Positions 1 through 6,955 of a stretch of DNA of 32,226 nucleotides are shown here, in pieces (within the stretch, counting starts at the first letter, position 1; each line of letters begins with the position of its first letter). The stretch is taken from assembly GCA_937927835.1 (NCBI GenBank), contig CALGJS010000448.1:1-32226 (forward strand), given 5' to 3'. The notes under the pieces were generated by a model. That model did not search any database. It was not told the origin of the DNA and saw nothing but the letters and a program-made list of their open reading frames with translations. The translations under genes and the position numbers were made by a program. This DNA comes from an uncultured Saprospiraceae bacterium (GTDB lineage Bacteria > Bacteroidota > Bacteroidia > Chitinophagales > Saprospiraceae).

Positions 1-113
1 GCGATGCTGTACGGTAGATCAATTAAATCATTTTTTGGATGTAAAACTTCGGCTAAACGCGTCTCGTCTCCTGCGATAAAGAAAGGTAATTGTGGGACGT
101 GTTTGGTGATCAT
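1..113 (-). CDS. Cupin-like protein, N-terminal part (runs off the window)
   Basis: The minus strand reads an open frame from ATG at 113-111 to the window edge, about 37 residues beginning MITKHVPQLPFFIAGDETRL and continuing through a LHPKND motif to a PYSIA-like end. This opening resembles small cupin-domain proteins of Bacteroidota, in which an N-terminal phrase such as AGD..-L.E.LHP leads into the beta-barrel. The barrel with its metal-binding His/Glu motifs lies outside the window, so the function cannot be tested here. The proposed ATG is followed upstream by AT-rich DNA without a Shine-Dalgarno site, as is usual in this phylum. The right end of the IS110 element lies about 100 bp upstream of this start, so the insertion could affect its promoter. 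Confidence 0.5.
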   Translation of the reverse strand, partial: MITKHVPQLPFFIAGDETRLAEVLHPKNDLIDLPYSI

Positions 114-269
114 TTTGTTGTTGAATTGTTTAATCGTTTAAAATTAATTAATAATTTTTTAATGAAGAATTAATAATGTTCTTTTAGCGTGTATATCTTT
201 CCTGCCTACCGGAATTCTATGATTCAAGCAAGAATAAATGAGAATATATTTTAAAAATAGAAATACATA

Positions 270-1283
270 CTAATAATTTAATTCGACAAATGGAGTTCCT
301 CTTTTAACCACTGCAAAGATACGTGCTACCAGTTTATTTTTTACTGCATTATAAACACATCCCTCACTCTTACCTTGTGCTATCTTTCTTTTAAAATAGG
401 CTTTAAGTTGTTTATCATGCTGGATGGCTGAACAACAAGCATTGCTAAAAAGAGCTTTAATTTTTTTATATCCTAATTTACTAACCTTAGGATCTTTATT
501 TAAACAAGTTCCAGAGCTTTCACCGAAAGGAACTATTGCGATATAACAGGCAAATTTACGGGCATTTTTAAAAGCCTTAAATGCGTTAGTATGAACAATC
601 ATTGTAGCTGCGATCACCAATCCTATTCCTTTTACAGATACCACCAATTCGTAAAGTCTATTTAATTCATCATCATCTTTAATGATCTGTCGTATCGCTT
701 TCTCAACCATTTTGATTTTAGCTTTTAATACCTTTATACAATCTGCTGAGTCTGTTGTGATCAGTTCTACTTTGAAAGCTTCGGGCATACATTGGTTAAA
801 CTCTTTTGAAGAAGCTTGAAGCATCACTTTTTGCTTAACTAATCTTTCTCGAAAAGAGAGTAAGCTTTTTAGTTGCATTAAGGTTTTTGATGGCAAGTTA
901 TTGATCTTTAAGTCTTTATAGTGAGTAAAAGCATATTTTACGATATCTTTAGAATCCGACTTATCATCTTTCCCTCTTTTGATACCTGAAGACCTTTTGA
1001 TCTGCAGAGCAGACTCCATAGAATAGTCTAGTCCTCTATCTTCCAAAAATACACAAAGTGCAAAGGTGTACACCCCGGTATGCTCCATACAAAATAACCA
1101 GTCTGAATCGACTCGATTATTAGTAGCATACCTTTTAATCCAGGCTATTAACTTTTTAAAGCCCTTTAAATTGTTGTCGAATTTACAATGATTCATCCTA
1201 GCTTTGTCGCCATCAGTTGTTAAAGCGGCATCAATCGTCTTTTTTGAGATATCAATACCGATGAAGAGTCCATAATTTTTCAT
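270..1283 (-). CDS. IS110-family transposase (DEDD recombinase)
   Basis: 337 residues, normal length for the family. The N-terminal RuvC-like DEDD domain (about 5-160) begins FIGIDISK, with acidic residues visible at D11, E67 (MEHTG), D110 and D113 (KSDSKD). The C-terminal Transposase_20 domain (about 210-300) starts with a helix-hairpin-helix-like segment (SVKGIGLVIAA, 216-226) and continues to FGESSGT (253-259). The serine pair there sits where IS110 enzymes carry their catalytic serine. The gene looks intact, with no frameshift or internal stop. IS110 recombinases move a circular double-stranded intermediate and are guided by a non-coding RNA from one element end; the candidate RNA lies 28 bp upstream of the start codon. 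The family assignment is secure; activity is inferred from intactness. Confidence 0.95.
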   Translation of the reverse strand: MKNYGLFIGIDISKKTIDAALTTDGDKARMNHCKFDNNLKGFKKLIAWIKRYATNNRVDSDWLFCMEHTGVYTFALCVFLEDRGLDYSMESALQIKRSSGIKRGKDDKSDSKDIVKYAFTHYKDLKINNLPSKTLMQLKSLLSFRERLVKQKVMLQASSKEFNQCMPEAFKVELITTDSADCIKVLKAKIKMVEKAIRQIIKDDDELNRLYELVVSVKGIGLVIAATMIVHTNAFKAFKNARKFACYIAIVPFGESSGTCLNKDPKVSKLGYKKIKALFSNACCSAIQHDKQLKAYFKRKIAQGKSEGCVYNAVKNKLVARIFAVVKRGTPFVELNY

Positions 1284-1310
1284 AATTTTAAGTTTATGAT
1301 GTTTTATAAT

Positions 1311-1490
1311 ACTCTTGCAGTTGAAGATAAAGTACTAATACCTTTAGTAGGCCATTATGCCTATAATTCTATTTGGTCCTGCACTAGCGATAACTAGTGT
1401 TAGTCTTCTAAAGTTGAGGACGGTCTAATTCCGGCAATAGGCATTCATAGCCTTGGCAGACAGATAGATCACCGTCTTCAACGCAAGAGT
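1311..1490 (-). ncRNA. Candidate bridge RNA of the IS110 element
   Basis: Read on the minus strand from 1490 to 1311, this 180-nt segment folds into a clear architecture. Outer arms ACTCTTGC (1490-1483) and GCAAGAGT (1318-1311) close the whole RNA. The first domain has a 12-bp stem (1482-1471 with 1424-1413, one A-C mismatch), two internal loop strands (1470-1454 and 1438-1425) and a capping hairpin (1453-1439). The second domain is closed by GAAGA/TCTTC. It holds a perfect hairpin CACTAG/CTAGTG (1399-1382), then loop strands around a TAGGC/GCCTA hairpin (1363-1348). Loop 1 contains ATCTGTCTGCCA (1465-1454), close to the left flank, and TGCCGGAATT (1436-1427), complementary to the right flank. 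Loop 2 contains ATAGAATT (1372-1365), identical to the right end of the element, and AAAGGTA (1345-1339), complementary to its left end. This is the target-loop then donor-loop order known for IS621. RNA ends are estimates. Confidence 0.75.
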
Positions 1491-1588
1491 GTTTTCCTAA
1501 AATAAAAAAAAATCTCTTGAAAAACTTATATATCTTATTTTTTATAACATTAACTTCTTTAAGCTAATTCAAAGGTAAAGGCAGGCAG

Positions 1589-1614
1589 GTTCCGCCACAA
1601 GGGCATGGTGGTAC
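1589..1614. repeat. Short imperfect hairpin between hscB and the IS110 left end
   Basis: The arms CCGCCA (1592-1597) and TGGTGG (1606-1611) pair with one G-T wobble around an 8-nt loop, three bases beyond the hscB stop codon. No T-run follows on the minus strand, so it is not a canonical terminator. The adjoining phrase ..TACTTCT resembles the GCACTTCTTTC edge of the REP-like units at 2165-2278, so it may be a diverged member of that family. Confidence 0.3.
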
Positions 1615-1616
1615 TT

Positions 1617-2138
1617 CTAAGACGCAAACTTACCCAAATTTTCCCTAATCCGCAACAAATACCGCTTTTTCAAATAATAATCTACTACCCCATCTAGTCC
1701 TTCATTATTCGTCGGATCTGCATCAAAGCGAGCGAGCAATGGCGCTACTTCTGCTTCTAGTTCCGCTTCCTTTTCAGAGAGCTGTTTTTGGATGGTAATA
1801 ACAGCCGCTGGATCTGGATCAAATTCTAATTCCATCAAGCCTTCATTCATTTCCATCATCTCCATCAAAAAATCTGGTGGGAGCTTATTCGTCCCCTCCT
1901 CTCCCATCGCACCAACCAGCGAAAGGATATATTTCATCCGTCGATCTTCGTCTCCTAAGGTTTTATAGGCCTCATTATTCAACGTAGAAAGGTGCAAGAT
2001 TTCTGCTTGCTTTTCTTCTGATTCTAACGTATAAAAATCCGGATGGTATTTTTTACTCAATGCATAAAATCGCTTCCGCAACGCTTCTGCATCTACACTA
2101 AAGCTGACCGGTATTTCGTAAAACTCAAAGTAGTTCAT
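1617..2138 (-). CDS. hscB: HscB-like J-domain co-chaperone for Fe-S cluster assembly
   Basis: 173 residues, the usual size of HscB. The J domain occupies about residues 1-75, opens NYFEFYEIPVSF and carries the diagnostic HPD tripeptide at 32-34 (KYHPDFY). A conserved helical C-terminal domain follows (about 90-170), rich in Glu and Leu, as in the HSCB_C region that contacts the scaffold protein IscU. In known systems HscB delivers IscU with its nascent cluster to the Hsp70 HscA and stimulates ATP hydrolysis. Neither hscA nor isc genes are next to it here, and the IS110 element lies directly downstream. A plain DnaJ-domain protein is the alternative, but the length and acidic helical C-terminus favour HscB. 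It ends with TAG. Confidence 0.85.
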   Translation of the reverse strand: MNYFEFYEIPVSFSVDAEALRKRFYALSKKYHPDFYTLESEEKQAEILHLSTLNNEAYKTLGDEDRRMKYILSLVGAMGEEGTNKLPPDFLMEMMEMNEGLMELEFDPDPAAVITIQKQLSEKEAELEAEVAPLLARFDADPTNNEGLDGVVDYYLKKRYLLRIRENLGKFAS

Positions 2139-2334: not shown

Positions 2335-2372
2335 AATCCACACATCCGCACATCAAACAATCCGCACATCTA
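2335..2372. repeat. Copy 1 of an intergenic repeat abutting a stop codon
   Basis: This stretch is built of AATCCACACATCCGCA followed by a second CCGCACATC. A near-identical copy lies at 16583-16621. Both copies sit at the 3' end of minus-strand genes and overlap or touch the stop codon (stop at 2370-2372 here). In transcript sense each reads GATGTGCGGATT-type units. No stable hairpin is evident. Confidence 0.5.
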
Positions 2373-3416
2373 AACGCCCCAAACCTCAATTTCCATAATC
2401 GCATCTACGTGTGCTTGCGCGATCTGGTCTCTTACTTCGTCGCTTAATAATTTTAAACATTCAGCTTTATTATTATAAAAACCGTTCTCGGTTAAGACTG
2501 CGGTCATACCCGTTTTACGGAGCACAAAAAACTGATTACCTGGACGAGATTTGATATGTCTATTTTTAAAACCTGTTTTCTCAACCAAATGTTTTTGAAA
2601 AACAGCTGCCATTTTTTTGCCTCGACGACTATTGTGATAAAACCATGTTTCAATTCCGCTGATCGACGGTGCCGACCATTTACCAAAAGGTGCTGGTGCT
2701 GCATTCGCGTGTACGGAAACAAATAACTTGGGTAAGGAAGAAGATTTTTGATTGGCTCGTTTTACGCGACCTTCGAGGAAGTTGTCGGTATTTACTTCCG
2801 GAACGACGATAAAATAAGCGACCCCAATTCGTTTTAACAAAATTTCTATTCGACGTACAATATCTCGATTAAAACGATACTCTAATAATTGGCGACCATC
2901 TGCTAATTTTGGCGAACGTTTTCCTGCTGTTTTACTTCCATGACCATTGTCTAAACACCAAAGGTAACGTTGCGTATGTGGCTTCGCATTTTCAGTAGGC
3001 GTTTCATCTTCTGGTGGATCAACCACCACTGTTCCTGGCAAATCAGGAATCTCTGGTTCCTCAATCGTTACCGGATCTTCCTCCGTAATAATGACAGGAT
3101 CCATCTCATTGATCACGACCACTTCGATAGAATCGGGCGGTACATCAGAACCATCTTGGGCAGCCAGTGAATCTTCTTCACTATCTATTACTTCAGGGTC
3201 AGGATTAGGCGTGTCGGTTCCGGGACGATCAAGATCAACTTCTGGAATAACCGGATCATCTGGTACCCACGGGTTGTCTTCGTTTTTGTCTTCCGGTTCA
3301 TCGAAAACGGGAGGATTCGTTTCTTTACGGGGAGGAGGCGGAGGTGTTGTCTTCTTTTTACCGCCAAACAAGCCCGAAAATAGGTTTTTGAAAAAGTCTA
3401 GTATTCCTTTTAGCAT
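2370..3416 (-). CDS. N-acetylmuramoyl-L-alanine amidase (Amidase_3 type)
   Basis: 348 residues in two parts. Residues 1-25 form an amphipathic Phe/Leu-rich and Lys-rich N-terminus. Residues 25-145 are a low-complexity Pro/Asp/Glu linker that starts with a polyproline run. The catalytic domain spans about 150-345 and shows the zinc amidase pattern: H159 in DNGHG, E179 in LLEYRFN, H236 in VSVHANA and catalytic E310 in LTENGF. Family enzymes cut the bond between MurNAc and L-Ala in peptidoglycan. No classical signal peptide is visible, so export is unclear; the N-terminus could associate with a membrane. The gene follows hscB in the same direction but the REP-like spacer of about 230 bp separates them. 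Function is confident, cellular role (division, recycling or lysis) is not. Confidence 0.88.
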   Translation of the reverse strand: MLKGILDFFKNLFSGLFGGKKKTTPPPPPRKETNPPVFDEPEDKNEDNPWVPDDPVIPEVDLDRPGTDTPNPDPEVIDSEEDSLAAQDGSDVPPDSIEVVVINEMDPVIITEEDPVTIEEPEIPDLPGTVVVDPPEDETPTENAKPHTQRYLWCLDNGHGSKTAGKRSPKLADGRQLLEYRFNRDIVRRIEILLKRIGVAYFIVVPEVNTDNFLEGRVKRANQKSSSLPKLFVSVHANAAPAPFGKWSAPSISGIETWFYHNSRRGKKMAAVFQKHLVEKTGFKNRHIKSRPGNQFFVLRKTGMTAVLTENGFYNNKAECLKLLSDEVRDQIAQAHVDAIMEIEVWGV

Positions 3417-3672: not shown

Positions 3673-4938
3673 ATGAAAAATCCTATACTATCATCAATCA
3701 TCACATTTCTGATTGCTTTATTATTCATGCCCTCTTTCCTATTTGGACAAGCTTGTCAAACTTCTCATAAGAGAACTGCACGAATTGCCCAACACCCTGA
3801 AATATTGGAAGATATGAATCAGATAAATCACTTTACAGAGGAATGGATTAGCGCTCAACAAATGACTGCACAGGTAAGAGAACTCGTTACCGTCCCTGTT
3901 GTCGTTCACGTGGTTTGGCTAGAAAACGATGAAAATATATCTGAAGCTCAGATTATGTCTCAGATAGATGTATTAAATGAGGATTTTAGAAAATTAAATG
4001 CCAACTTTTCGACCACCCCAGCTGCTTTTCAAGCCATCGCTGCTGATGTTGAAATTGAGTTTTGCTTAGCAAGTATAGACCCTAATGGAAATCCAACCAA
4101 CGGAATAACTCGTACACAAACAAACATTCAAGAGATAGGAGAAACGGAAAGCTTCTACGATAGCTCAGCAGGTGGTCATGATCCATGGGACAATACCCAA
4201 TACATTAATATTTGGGTTTGTAATCAGGAAGAAGGAAGTTTAGGATTTGCTACTCCTCCCGGAACAGCATTTCCAGAAGAATCAGATGGAGTGGTCATTC
4301 CTTCTGTCTATTTTGGAACAATTGGTACCGCAGCCAACTCAGTACCTAATCATCTAGGACGAACCGCAACCCATGAAATGGGACATTACTTTAACCTAGA
4401 ACATATCTGGGGTCCTGGTGATGGTGGTTGCAACGAAGATGATTTTATTGCTGACACACCAAGTCAAGAATTTGAGTCCGGAGGTTGTCCAAACTTTCCT
4501 TTTACAGATGGTTGTACACCAAATGGAAATGGAATCAATTTTCAGAATTACTTAGACTACTCTGACGATGATTGTATGACTATGTTTACGGAAGGTCAAA
4601 AGATGAGAATGTTGGCTGCACTCAATGGTCCAAGAGCTTCACTTCTGACGTCTAATGGTTGTAATGCAATGGTTGCTACAAATGATCTTAATAATTTTGA
4701 AAATTCGGTTCGTATTTTTCCAAATCCAACAAATCAATTGATAACTATCACAATTGAAAATACTTATGCTTCACAGAACCTAAATTGGGAACTTTTCGAT
4801 ATGGTTGGAAAAAAATATCTAGAATTTTCCATGACTGAAAAGAAAGAATTAAATCTATCAAATTTACCAGAAGGTGTTTATTATCTTAGCTGTTTGAACT
4901 TTTCAAAATCAGTAAAGAAAATAGTTATTACAAAATAA
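3673..4938 (+). CDS. Secreted M43 (pappalysin-like) zinc metalloprotease with T9SS sorting domain
   Basis: 421 residues. A signal peptide covers about 1-26 (hydrophobic core followed by FLFGQ). The protease domain (about 70-330) has the extended zinc motif HEMGHYFNLEH at 234-244, so H234, H238 and H244 bind zinc and E235 is catalytic. A metzincin Met-turn region lies at 293-305 (YLDYSDDDCMTMF), typical of M43 cytophagalysins. The C-terminal domain from about 345 (VRIFPNPTNQ) to the final KKIVITK is a type A T9SS sorting domain, so the protein should cross the outer membrane and be released or anchored at the surface. The Cys pairs in the catalytic domain suit an extracellular protein. A lipoprotein gene follows after only 6 bp, so the two are probably co-transcribed. 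Confidence 0.93.
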   Translation: MKNPILSSIITFLIALLFMPSFLFGQACQTSHKRTARIAQHPEILEDMNQINHFTEEWISAQQMTAQVRELVTVPVVVHVVWLENDENISEAQIMSQIDVLNEDFRKLNANFSTTPAAFQAIAADVEIEFCLASIDPNGNPTNGITRTQTNIQEIGETESFYDSSAGGHDPWDNTQYINIWVCNQEEGSLGFATPPGTAFPEESDGVVIPSVYFGTIGTAANSVPNHLGRTATHEMGHYFNLEHIWGPGDGGCNEDDFIADTPSQEFESGGCPNFPFTDGCTPNGNGINFQNYLDYSDDDCMTMFTEGQKMRMLAALNGPRASLLTSNGCNAMVATNDLNNFENSVRIFPNPTNQLITITIENTYASQNLNWELFDMVGKKYLEFSMTEKKELNLSNLPEGVYYLSCLNFSKSVKKIVITK

Positions 4939-5545: not shown

Positions 5546-6955
5546 TCAATACCCACTCGCCCGCTGAAACTGCGTTTGCGAAAAGGTACCTTCCATTTTA
5601 GCAATAGATTTACGTTTTTCTAAAACACTAAGAATGTCATCTGGAAGCTCAAAACCCATTTGTCTTAATTCCTGTATTCTTCGATTGAGATTTAAAACAT
5701 CGCGACTGTATTTATTTTTAAAAATAAGTTCGACACACTGTGCAGTGGTAAGATCCTTAAAACGCTTTGGATATTTATTTTCAATCTTATCGGATTCTAT
5801 TCTATTTTGCTGGGCAACCTTTCTTTGTTCCGCTATTTTTGCCAATCGAATCTCTGCGGCCTTTTCCATCCACTCCTGCTTTATCTTTTTGTCGCGCTTT
5901 TCTGCTTTGGCGCGTTGTGCAGCTAACTTTTTACGATGTTTTTCAGCCGCCTCTTTCTTTCTTTTTTCTTCCAATAGTCTTGCTTTTCGCGCTTCTTCAA
6001 AACGTTCAACTGCGATGATGCGTCCATGCATTTTTTCTTTTTCGATTCGTTTTCCTTCGTATTGAATTTGTGCCGCCAACTCTTGTTTGGCTTCATTTAA
6101 TTTTCTATAAAATGGAAAAACATAAGGCTTAAACGTCTCTGCATCAATATGAAGATCTTCCAAAGCAACTAAGCTGTGCTCCCAGGAAATTTCAATCGTC
6201 ATTTTTTCAAAATTAACCTGAGGAACTCGATAATGGCAGGTAAGGAATAGTTTGTTGGCCACCTTGGATGCCTCCATGGCCGCTTGGTCTAGGACGAAGG
6301 CGTTGACTTCTGGATTGTTATATATGATATCAGCTTGTGTCAATTTGACGTCTGACGATAATGGATCAAATTGGTTGAATACCCAAACGATCGCAACTTT
6401 TTCTTTTTTGTAAAAACTATCTCTGGCTACAATATCACTTAACCCTGTATTCGAATTTTGAATTTCAAATACCATGTCTTGGTGATTATAATTGCAACTA
6501 ACATCGGGACGTTTCCAGGTAGATAATACCTTTTTTCCTTTTACGATCTTTTCTATTTCTGGTGCACCAATTATTTTGGAATCCATCTTTAAATGATCGT
6601 GAATAAAATGCTTTAACTTTTCATGCTCCTCTGCTTCCTTGGATGCATTATATAACTGAATCCTTTGTTCCGTATAACTCAATTTATCCATCAAGGCACA
6701 CTTCACTCCTTCTTCTCTTTGATTGTGCTGAAAGAAGAAAGTTCCGTCCCTACCTTTTTTAAGTTCTACCCCGGTTTTACAACTGGGACAGCCATACGCT
6801 TTCTTATTAGCTCTTAGCGCATATCTTAATTTGATAATGGTTTCATTGTCTTGACTAAGCCAAGAATCTGCTTGTTCTATTTTTCCAGTGTTGAAATTAA
6901 AGATCTCAAGCATTCGTAAATTGTAAGCATTCTGCTCCTTATATATTGCATTCAT
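5546..6955 (-). CDS. CoiA/DUF6035-like putative nuclease with zinc motif and coiled coil
   Basis: 469 residues. The N-terminal part has a likely zinc-binding set, C56-x2-C59 (GCPSC), H77 and C86, inside a segment containing FFFQHNQ, as in the front domain of CoiA-like proteins. Next comes a PD-(D/E)xK-type core: KRPDVSCNYNHQ with D151, then MVFEIQNS with E164 and Q166, an E-x-Q variant typical of CoiA and DUF6035. Residues about 285-400 form a long charged Lys/Glu/Ala-rich coiled coil, and the end is a short basic domain. CoiA itself aids DNA uptake and recombination in competent bacteria; the role in Bacteroidota is not established. It stands alone on the minus strand. A generic restriction-like DNA-processing protein is an alternative. 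Confidence 0.65.
   Translation of the reverse strand: MNAIYKEQNAYNLRMLEIFNFNTGKIEQADSWLSQDNETIIKLRYALRANKKAYGCPSCKTGVELKKGRDGTFFFQHNQREEGVKCALMDKLSYTEQRIQLYNASKEAEEHEKLKHFIHDHLKMDSKIIGAPEIEKIVKGKKVLSTWKRPDVSCNYNHQDMVFEIQNSNTGLSDIVARDSFYKKEKVAIVWVFNQFDPLSSDVKLTQADIIYNNPEVNAFVLDQAAMEASKVANKLFLTCHYRVPQVNFEKMTIEISWEHSLVALEDLHIDAETFKPYVFPFYRKLNEAKQELAAQIQYEGKRIEKEKMHGRIIAVERFEEARKARLLEEKRKKEAAEKHRKKLAAQRAKAEKRDKKIKQEWMEKAAEIRLAKIAEQRKVAQQNRIESDKIENKYPKRFKDLTTAQCVELIFKNKYSRDVLNLNRRIQELRQMGFELPDDILSVLEKRKSIAKMEGTFSQTQFQRASGY

What the first reader, a model, noticed from the sequence alone, without database searches (positions are those of the whole stretch)
213..1590. IS110 element with a bridge RNA whose four guides match its own flanks and ends
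Seen: the leader RNA (minus strand, 1490 to 1311) has two domains, each with a stem, two internal loop strands and a capping hairpin. Domain 1: ATCTGTCTGCCA (1465-1454) resembles the left flank ACCTGCCTGCCT (1590-1579) in 9 of 12 positions; two of the three differences become U-G pairs. TGCCGGAATT (1436-1427) pairs with the right-flank AATTCCGGTA (216-207) over 10 bases with one G-T. Domain 2: ATAGAATT (1372-1365) equals the right end (220-213), and AAAGGTA (1345-1339) pairs with left-end TACCTTT (1577-1571). Known: in IS621-type bridge RNAs the first loop reads the target and the second the donor junction, each with a left guide like the top strand and a right guide complementary to it. All four matches fall in the predicted strand and order. 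Inference: this is a functional bridge RNA, with a guide pair unlike IS621, in a Bacteroidota host.
Basis: partly seen in the sequence, partly recalled or inferred. Interest (0 to 1): 0.85.

Follow-up and report, generated by a model that had tools for sequence, protein, structure and literature searches.

The report
RNA-guided jumping gene in Bacteroidota
This stretch is a small mobile DNA element that appears to carry its own guide RNA, which reads both the element's ends and a repeated palindrome of the host genome; it belongs to a known kind (bridge-RNA elements such as IS621), but to a Bacteroidota branch in which the crossover core seems reduced to one fixed base.

Summary
Window 213-1581 (minus strand) is an IS110-group element with a DEDD/serine recombinase (1283-270) and a two-loop bridge RNA upstream of it. 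The fold is supported by changes on both sides in 23 of 25 pairs. Guides follow flanks across relatives: left target guide 6.05 of 7 against 3.12 for other elements' flanks (n=46); right target guide 4.71 of 6 against 2.09 (n=41). The target is a REP-like palindrome, CCTGCCTGCCGGYAGGCAGG, found at 17 other places in the same genome (up to 2 mismatches), reversed control 0.

Two corrections. TACCTTTG fits the -7 box of a Bacteroidota-type promoter whose TTG half lies in the right end, so it is complete only in the excised circle (23 of 41 elements, always 20-nt spacing). And "TGCCGGAATT" is right target guide plus handshake guide.

Possible novelty of the branch: the guide facing the core is G in 48 of 48, so the fixed base is C, and its neighbour is read from the donor by the target loop in 18 of 19 informative cases. 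No activity was tested.

The parts
213..1581 (-). IS110-group element, one core base (C1581) counted with it; right end at 213, left end from 1580
   Evidence: Ends match conserved ends of relatives (left end TTTAG-like, right end CATAGAA-like); flanks rejoin to a palindrome present elsewhere in the genome
270..1283 (-). recombinase, 337 aa, DEDD RuvC-like domain plus Tnp (serine) domain
   Evidence: PF01548 8.2e-21, PF02371 4.2e-14; phmmer to ISCro4 7.4e-24 and IS621 9.1e-22; D11, E67, D107, D110, S257 align with IS621 D11, E60, D102, D105, S241
1313..1490 (-). bridge RNA stretch used for the alignment: target-binding loop about 1482-1413, donor-binding loop about 1378-1333 (outermost aligned helix pairs)
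   Evidence: Fold z -4.66; alignment A2 of 23 sequences, 87.6% of cells paired against 64.7% shuffled, 23 of 25 pairs with a change on both sides; RNAalifold finds the same four helices
1454..1465 (-). left target guide (LTG); C1456 reads core base C1581
   Evidence: 6.5 of 7 at positions 2-8; best of 45 other flanks 6.0
1431..1437 (-). right target guide (RTG) UUGCCGG; G1431 pairs core base C212
   Evidence: 5 of 6 at positions 10-15; G at this place in 48 of 48
1427..1430 (-). handshake guide AAUU of the target loop, pairs with right-end AATT 216-213
   Evidence: Where target and donor differ, this guide pairs the donor base (Watson-Crick) in 18 of 19 at position 8, 34 of 34 at 7, 24 of 32 at 6, 14 of 32 at 5
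1365..1372 (-). left donor guide (LDG) AUAGAAUU, same as right end 220-213
   Evidence: 8 of 8 here; own-end identity 39 of 41 at position 1 (other ends 56%) and 41 of 41 at position 7 (other ends 49%); positions 2-6 are nearly invariant anyway
1341..1345 (-). right donor guide (RDG) AAAGG, pairs with CCTTT 1581-1577; U1340 and A1339 can pair target G1582 and T1583
   Evidence: G facing the core in 48 of 48 and positions 10-12 paired 2.99 of 3, but RDG pairing helped to place the left ends and the crops
1570..1577 (-). -7 box TACCTTTG (TAnnTTTG) of the circle-junction promoter
   Evidence: TAnn[TC]TTG at this place in 23 of 41; spacing to TTG 20 nt
229..232 (-). upstream box CTTG of the circle-junction promoter, in the right end
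   Evidence: TTG at this place in 31 of 41 right ends against 3 of 39 integrated left flanks
1581..1590 (-). left target half, ACCTGCCTGC including core base C1581
201..212 (-). right target half, core base C212 then CGGTAGGCAGG
   Evidence: joined halves give CCTGCCTGCCGGTAGGCAGG

Best explanation
A bridge-RNA-guided IS110-group insertion sequence. Proposed cycle: the recombinase and its bridge RNA excise the element as a circle; the circle joins right end to left end and so re-creates a Bacteroidota-type promoter (CTTG-N20-TACCTTTG) that transcribes the bridge RNA and recombinase; the donor loop reads the circle junction (LDG with the right end, RDG with CC-TTT of the left end); the target loop reads a dispersed host palindrome, CCTGCCTG-C-CGGYAGGCAGG (LTG with the left half, RTG with the right half); strands are exchanged at a shared C, and the handshake guide AAUU pairs with the donor bases next to the core. 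Shown by computation: element limits, fold, guides that follow flanks, host repeat, promoter halves. Inferred: expression, excision, insertion and the order of steps, all by analogy with IS621.
For: Recombinase domains and catalytic residues. Two-loop fold in 23 aligned sequences, 0 of 500 shuffles as good on any measure. LTG against own flank mean 6.05 of 7, other flanks 3.12; sum 278.5 against at most 176.5 in 20,000 permutations; 39 of 46 at 5 or more. RTG 4.71 of 6 against 2.09, sum 193 against at most 115 in 20,000 permutations; 37 of 41 at 4 or more. LDG 6.95 of 7 against 5.81, sum 285 against at most 261. Multi-copy relatives sit at repeated sites: five copies in G1095 share a near-identical target motif that their guides read. 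Predicted target at 17 distinct places in the own genome with up to 2 mismatches, control 0. Junction promoter in 23 of 41 at 20 nt, null mean 0.06.
Against: No empty orthologous site was found: the same locus in four congeners has an intact tRNA-Leu and no palindrome, so this target is inferred from repeats elsewhere. One copy in the genome, so no second insertion of this very element. Seven of 46 relatives have LTG scores under 5 (L070, L073, L118, L120, L131, L135, L136) and four of 41 have RTG under 4 (L112, L120, L124, L137). The handshake on the donor-loop side is weak: at position 6 the RDG-side guide pairs the donor's own base in 24 of 32 and the target's in 1 (plus 9 wobbles). No Rfam match. 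No RNA or recombination data. Left ends were partly located with the RDG, so the RDG figure is not independent.
Confidence: 0.93

Rival explanations
1. A bridge-RNA element that is now inactive: RNA and guides are inherited, but this copy no longer moves. (Not exclusive of the best explanation: same kind, different state.)
For: Single copy in a 4.7 Mb assembly; its target match includes wobble pairs (two U-G in LTG; G-T and U-G in RTG).
Against: Open reading frame intact with all five catalytic residues; guides, promoter halves and ends in register. The assembly is 74.7% complete, so further copies may be missing.
Confidence: 0.3
2. An ordinary IS110 whose target choice is made by the protein; the RNA matches are coincidence plus a structured 5' leader.
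Against: Guide letters change together with flanks over 41-46 relatives, and the fold is kept by changes on both sides.
Confidence: 0.02
3. The flanks are an assembly chimera: the two sides of the element do not lie together in any cell.
For: The left flank is the first 15 nt of a tRNA-Leu(CAA) gene, cut short; the right flank is a dispersed repeat; window 1-141 is an exact 141-nt overlap with the end of contig C196.
Against: The element is single copy in the assembly, so a collapsed repeat is unlikely; both flanks carry the two halves of one palindrome, in register with both guides.
Confidence: 0.07

Closest known systems
IS621 (IS110 group, Escherichia coli), bridge RNA and recombinase (PMC11208160, PMC11208158; PDB 8wt6)
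   Same: RNA upstream of the recombinase gene; target loop before donor loop; left guide like the top strand, right guide complementary; handshake guide; [quoted passage not shown] five catalytic residues.
   Different: The fixed core base is C, not T, and its neighbour is not shared in 19 of 41 relatives; the junction promoter is of Bacteroidota type, not sigma-70 type; here the right target guide can pair seven bases, against four (extendable to seven) in IS621; other target; IS621 A61 and N84 align with H68 and S91.
ISCro4 recombinase (PDB 9t56)
   Same: Best sequence match among solved structures, 7.4e-24; same domain order.
   Different: Its guides and core were not compared here.
IS1111-group elements with seekRNA (PMC11187229)
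   Same: DEDD transposase with an RNA from a non-coding end that reads both target strands.
   Different: There the RNA usually lies downstream of the gene, the order of target matches is reversed and subterminal inverted repeats are present (abstract); here the RNA lies upstream.
L057, uncultured Saprospiraceae bacterium CALFBH010000004.1
   Same: 55% identical recombinase, aligned bridge RNA, same donor end and RDG.
   Different: Other target: LTG GUUAAAAC and RTG CAAUGG fit its own flanks GGTTAAAAC and CCATTG.

Membership tests
IS110 family (IS110 group) | DEDD RuvC-like domain and Tnp domain with catalytic serine | tested here: met
   PF01548 and PF02371 above cut-off; D11/E67/D107/D110/S257
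IS110 family (IS110 group) | Long left end, short right end, bridge RNA upstream of the gene | tested here: met
   Left end 297 nt (1580-1284), right end 57 nt (269-213); RNA within 1490-1313
IS110 family (IS110 group) | No long terminal inverted repeats (IS1111 has 7-17 bp subterminal repeats) | not tested
   The repeat search had a minimum length of 20, too coarse for short subterminal repeats
IS621-type bridge RNA | Target loop with LTG and RTG matching own flanks | tested here: met
   Window LTG 6.5 of 7, RTG 5 of 6; guides follow flanks over 46 and 41 elements
IS621-type bridge RNA | Donor loop with LDG and RDG matching own ends | tested here: met
   LDG 8 of 8, follows own end; RDG AAAGG with CCTTT, but RDG helped place the left ends
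IS621-type bridge RNA | CT core dinucleotide shared by target and donor, second base T nearly invariant | tested here: not met
   Guide facing the fixed base is G in 48 of 48 RTGs; the adjacent base differs between junctions in 19 of 41, in the window G against T. The C in the DNA was required by my search rule, so the RTG is the independent witness. CT is described for IS621 and related orthologues, not as a condition for every IS110
IS621-type bridge RNA | Handshake guides that pair the partner DNA after strand exchange | tested here: inconclusive
   Target-loop side clear (donor base 34 of 34 at position 7, 18 of 19 at position 8); donor-loop side mixed (position 7: target 13, donor 9 of 34; position 6: donor 24, target 1 plus 9 wobbles of 32)
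IS621-type bridge RNA | Promoter reconstituted at the circle junction | tested here: met
   Sequence only: TTG-N20-TAnn[TC]TTG in 23 of 41 junctions including the window, 2 of 39 integrated left ends
IS621-type bridge RNA | RNA expressed, bound by the recombinase and required for recombination | not testable with these tools
   Needs experiment

The most novel reading that the evidence does not exclude
A Bacteroidota branch of IS110 recombinases works with a single fixed core base (C) instead of the CT dinucleotide: the base before it has left the core and joined the handshake, so that the target loop reads the donor's base there. The same branch drives its guide RNA from a Bacteroidota-type promoter that exists only when the ends are joined in the circle. 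If so, donor and target need share only one base, which would relax the main sequence constraint described for IS621.
Probability: 0.5. Interest if true: 0.6.

Novelty: new variant of a known kind. Interest (0 to 1): 0.5.

Why it matters
Bridge recombinases are being developed as RNA-programmable tools for inserting, deleting and inverting DNA. The text I read on IS621 reports a strong preference for a CT core in both partners; other first bases worked less well when changed in donor, target and guides together. Here are natural relatives, in another phylum, whose RNAs and junctions suggest that one shared base can be enough and that the neighbouring base is handled by handshake pairing. That is directly testable by swapping guides. 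The split promoter also suggests how the circle-junction promoter was refitted to the host phylum's sigma factor. And a dispersed REP-like palindrome as target matches the REP insertion known for IS110 elements, in an uncultured Bacteroidota host.

Tried and rejected
Rejected: my own first frame with a CC core (note); relatives fixed the frame by the RTG/RDG columns. My idea that target and donor differ at the base after the C (note) came from a frame shifted by one and was dropped. A numbering in which the fixed C equals IS621 position 8 rather than 9 is not excluded; I prefer 9 because the top-strand cut after 9 (PMC11208158, section 12) then fits both junctions. Either way only one base is shared in the 19 differing elements.

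No result: Rfam; single-protein scans of genome and viral contigs and an alignment scan of viral contigs; orthologous empty site; the palindrome within the fetched loci of the three Y1-transposase genes (up to 4 substitutions). IS621 N84 aligns with S91 here, but the clade is mixed (15 S, 15 N, 9 P, others), so I did not use it as an explanation. Structure prediction was not run, since solved homologues exist.

What was counted and dropped. 71 oriented loci (window, 7 of the loci, 26, 37) were parsed; L010, L016, L019 and L021-L039 were fetched but not parsed, and L011 and L059 show the same element as L057. Of the 71, L129 had no leader, four lacked the LDG motif (L017, L020, L127, L130), nine were exact duplicates; 57 were aligned. 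L060 and L128 carried no alignable RNA, leaving 55; five were dropped for a weak left end and two for repeated guides, leaving 48. The left flank was long enough in 46; the right end was found by my rule in 41. The loci are best hits of capped searches, not a random sample, and related rows are not independent. The rules for both ends require a C at the core base; the crops were chosen partly on the RDG motif. My first LTG count (two offsets) gave 5.47 against 2.84; the count quoted allows three offsets for own and other flanks alike. For the fold, 27 rows of one RDG type were selected and 23 given (L069, L018, L116, L118 left out); its helices were chosen on that alignment.

Full report
What is there. 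On the minus strand, 1283-270 encodes a 337-aa protein with the IS110 domains PF01548 and PF02371. Its only relatives among solved structures at E up to 0.001 are ISCro4 (7.4e-24) and IS621 (9.1e-22). The IS621 catalytic residues D11, E60, D102, D105 and S241 are kept in 47, 48, 48, 47 and 48 of 48 clade members, and all five in the window. It is the only copy in a 4.7 Mb, 74.7% complete assembly; a second IS110-like protein there is 24% identical.

The RNA. The leader folds at -59.8 kcal/mol, z -4.66 against 200 shuffles. Rfam has no match. I collected relatives by protein searches among relatives, order, class and phylum and from named genomes (L057 Saprospiraceae, L058 Cytophagales). In an alignment of 23 leaders a structure with a target-loop stem of 11 pairs, its cap, a donor-loop stem of 3 pairs and its cap has 87.6% of cells paired (shuffled mean 64.7%), 23 of 25 pairs with a change on both sides, covariation score 0.674 (shuffled 0.241), 0 of 500 shuffles as good. 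RNAalifold on the same alignment predicts the same four helices, in part shorter, plus three pairs inside the first. The helices were picked on this alignment, so the slid controls lean towards them, and relatedness of the rows inflates the shuffle comparison.

Guides. The geometry is from two papers: PMC11208160 (passages and section 12) and PMC11208158 (passages and sections 11 and 12). There LTG equals target positions 1-9, RTG pairs 8-11 (extendable to 14), LDG equals donor 1-8, RDG pairs 8-14 with a gap, and handshake guides after RTG and RDG pair positions 7 and 6 of the other DNA. Here the guide letters follow the flanks. LTG at positions 2-8: own flank 6.05 of 7, other flanks 3.12, n=46; sum 278.5 against a maximum of 176.5 in 20,000 permutations; own score 5 or more in 39 of 46, others in 101 of 2070; own flank alone on top in 30 of 46. 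RTG at positions 10-15: own 4.71 of 6, others 2.09, n=41; own 4 or more in 37 of 41, others in 127 of 1640. LDG: own 6.95 of 7, others 5.81; most of that contrast sits at positions 1 and 7, as the rest hardly varies. Window: LTG 6.5 of 7, RTG 5 of 6, LDG 8 of 8.

AAAGGTA in the RNA is conserved in L057, but the DNA heptamer TACCTTT is not: L057 has CCTTTAGTTTTG. What is conserved is CC-TTT, which AAAGG pairs at 1581-1577. RDG pairing was used to place left ends, so its near-perfect score (2.99 of 3) is not independent. TACCTTT belongs to TACCTTTG, which fits TAnnTTTG, the -7 element of the Bacteroidota primary sigma factor. The consensus (TAnnTTTG, and TTTG near -33) is quoted from passages of PMC7366714, which add that the -33 motif was not found in Flavobacterium johnsoniae.

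Circle-junction promoter. When right end, C and left end are joined, 23 of 41 elements, the window included, show TTG-N20-TAnn[TC]TTG. Spacings 17-19 and 21-24 give none; 14, 15, 16 and 25 give 1, 2, 1 and 1. Markov resampling gives 0.06 of 41 on average, at most 2. The integrated left end, with target DNA in place of the right end, has both boxes in 2 of 39. In 18 of 41 the two boxes as I wrote them are not both present. So the promoter is split between the ends and complete only in the circle. For IS621 a sigma-70-like junction promoter is described (passages). My paper searches listed no paper that, by title or start of abstract, treats this in Bacteroidota; the library holds open-licence PMC papers only and the lists were capped.

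Target. Joining the flanks with one core base gives CCTGCCTGCCGGTAGGCAGG in its context. The own genome has 15 forward and 15 reverse matches with up to 2 mismatches, at 17 distinct places; the reversed control has 0. In the listed orientation 10 of the 17 read GGCAGG where the occupied site has GGTAGG, and 3 read GGTAGG. With C there, RTG G1435 makes a Watson-Crick pair instead of G-T, so the guide fits the common repeat better than the site itself. A congener carries the right-flank repeat uninterrupted, TTTAACGTGTATATCTTTCCTGCCTGCCGG, 28 of 30 identical to window 183-212. IS110 insertion into REP sequences is known (PMC11208160, passage; PMC1525189, search listing only).

No orthologous empty site. 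In four congeners (G002, G004, G005, G006) the same place beside the hscB-like gene holds an intact tRNA-Leu(CAA). In the window only its first 15 nt remain, followed by the left half of the palindrome; the rest of that tRNA was not found in the incomplete assembly. This is unexplained: a repeat may have entered or rearranged the tRNA before the element came, or the contig is wrong. Window 1-141 equals the last 141 nt of contig C196, which looks like an assembler overlap (recalled).

Core. The guide base facing the fixed core base is G in 48 of 48 RTGs and 48 of 48 RDGs, so this base is C; IS621 has T. The C in the DNA was demanded by my rules for both ends and the RDG motif helped to choose the crops, so the RTG is the independent witness. 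The base before it (position 8) differs between left and right junction in 19 of 41. In those the RTG base pairs the donor's base in 18 of 19 (Watson-Crick) and the target's in 0 (4 wobbles); the RDG-side base pairs the target's base in 4 by Watson-Crick and 11 by wobble, the donor's in 7 and 1. Where the junctions agree, both guides pair in 22 of 22. Further out, the RTG side pairs the donor base in 34 of 34 (position 7), 24 of 32 (6) and 14 of 32 (5). So on the target-loop side position 8 behaves like a handshake position. Against this: 22 of 41 elements still share an NC dinucleotide; the donor-loop side is mixed at position 7 (target 13, donor 9 of 34) and at positions 6 and 5 pairs the donor's own base (24 and 26 of 32); I took the left junction as showing the target's base; and the numbering against IS621 rests on the cut after position 9.

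Assessment. As a system this is a bridge-RNA IS110 element, a known kind. The Bacteroidota branch differs from IS621 in core and promoter, which I file as a variant. Natural retargeting and RNAs that follow targets are already described for the family (PMC11208160, passages; PMC11187229, outline and sections 12 and 13). That this element works is inferred from conservation, not shown.

Noticed in passing
window 1590-1604 (minus) and flanks; L092-L095: First 15 nt of a tRNA-Leu(CAA) gene, cut by the palindrome half next to the element; four congeners have the intact gene at this place, and the remainder was not found in this assembly.
   Followed up: partly
window 1-141: Identical over exactly 141 nt to the end of contig C196, probably an assembler overlap; it holds the start of a small protein gene that continues on C196.
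   Followed up: partly
window 142-200, 2149-2332; many contigs of G000-G006: AT-rich dispersed repeats of TTAATTAATAATTTTTTAATGAA-like units in this genus; in the window two copies carry GCCTGCGTACCGAATAAGGTA-GGCAC stretches.
   Followed up: no
G000 loci L149, L150, L151: Three Y1-transposase (PF01797) matches in the same genome, a kind that can mobilise REP sequences (recalled); the CCTGCCTGCC palindrome was not found in their fetched surroundings.
   Followed up: partly
L142, L145-L148 (one single-contig genome, G1095): Five copies of an IS110 relative sit in a dispersed repeat reading CGTTCCTC-GAAATGACA (GGAATGACA in two copies), fitting their guides; a good system for experiments.
   Followed up: partly
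L112: Left target guide fits its flank (6 of 7) but the right target guide does not (2.5 of 6), as if it had inserted at a half-matching site or its right flank had been replaced.
   Followed up: no
window 1617-2138 and 2370-3416 (minus), 3673-4938 (+), 5546-6955 (minus): Ordinary neighbours: hscB-like co-chaperone, N-acetylmuramoyl-L-alanine amidase, M43 peptidase with Por secretion tail, protein with a CoiA-like nuclease domain.
   Followed up: no
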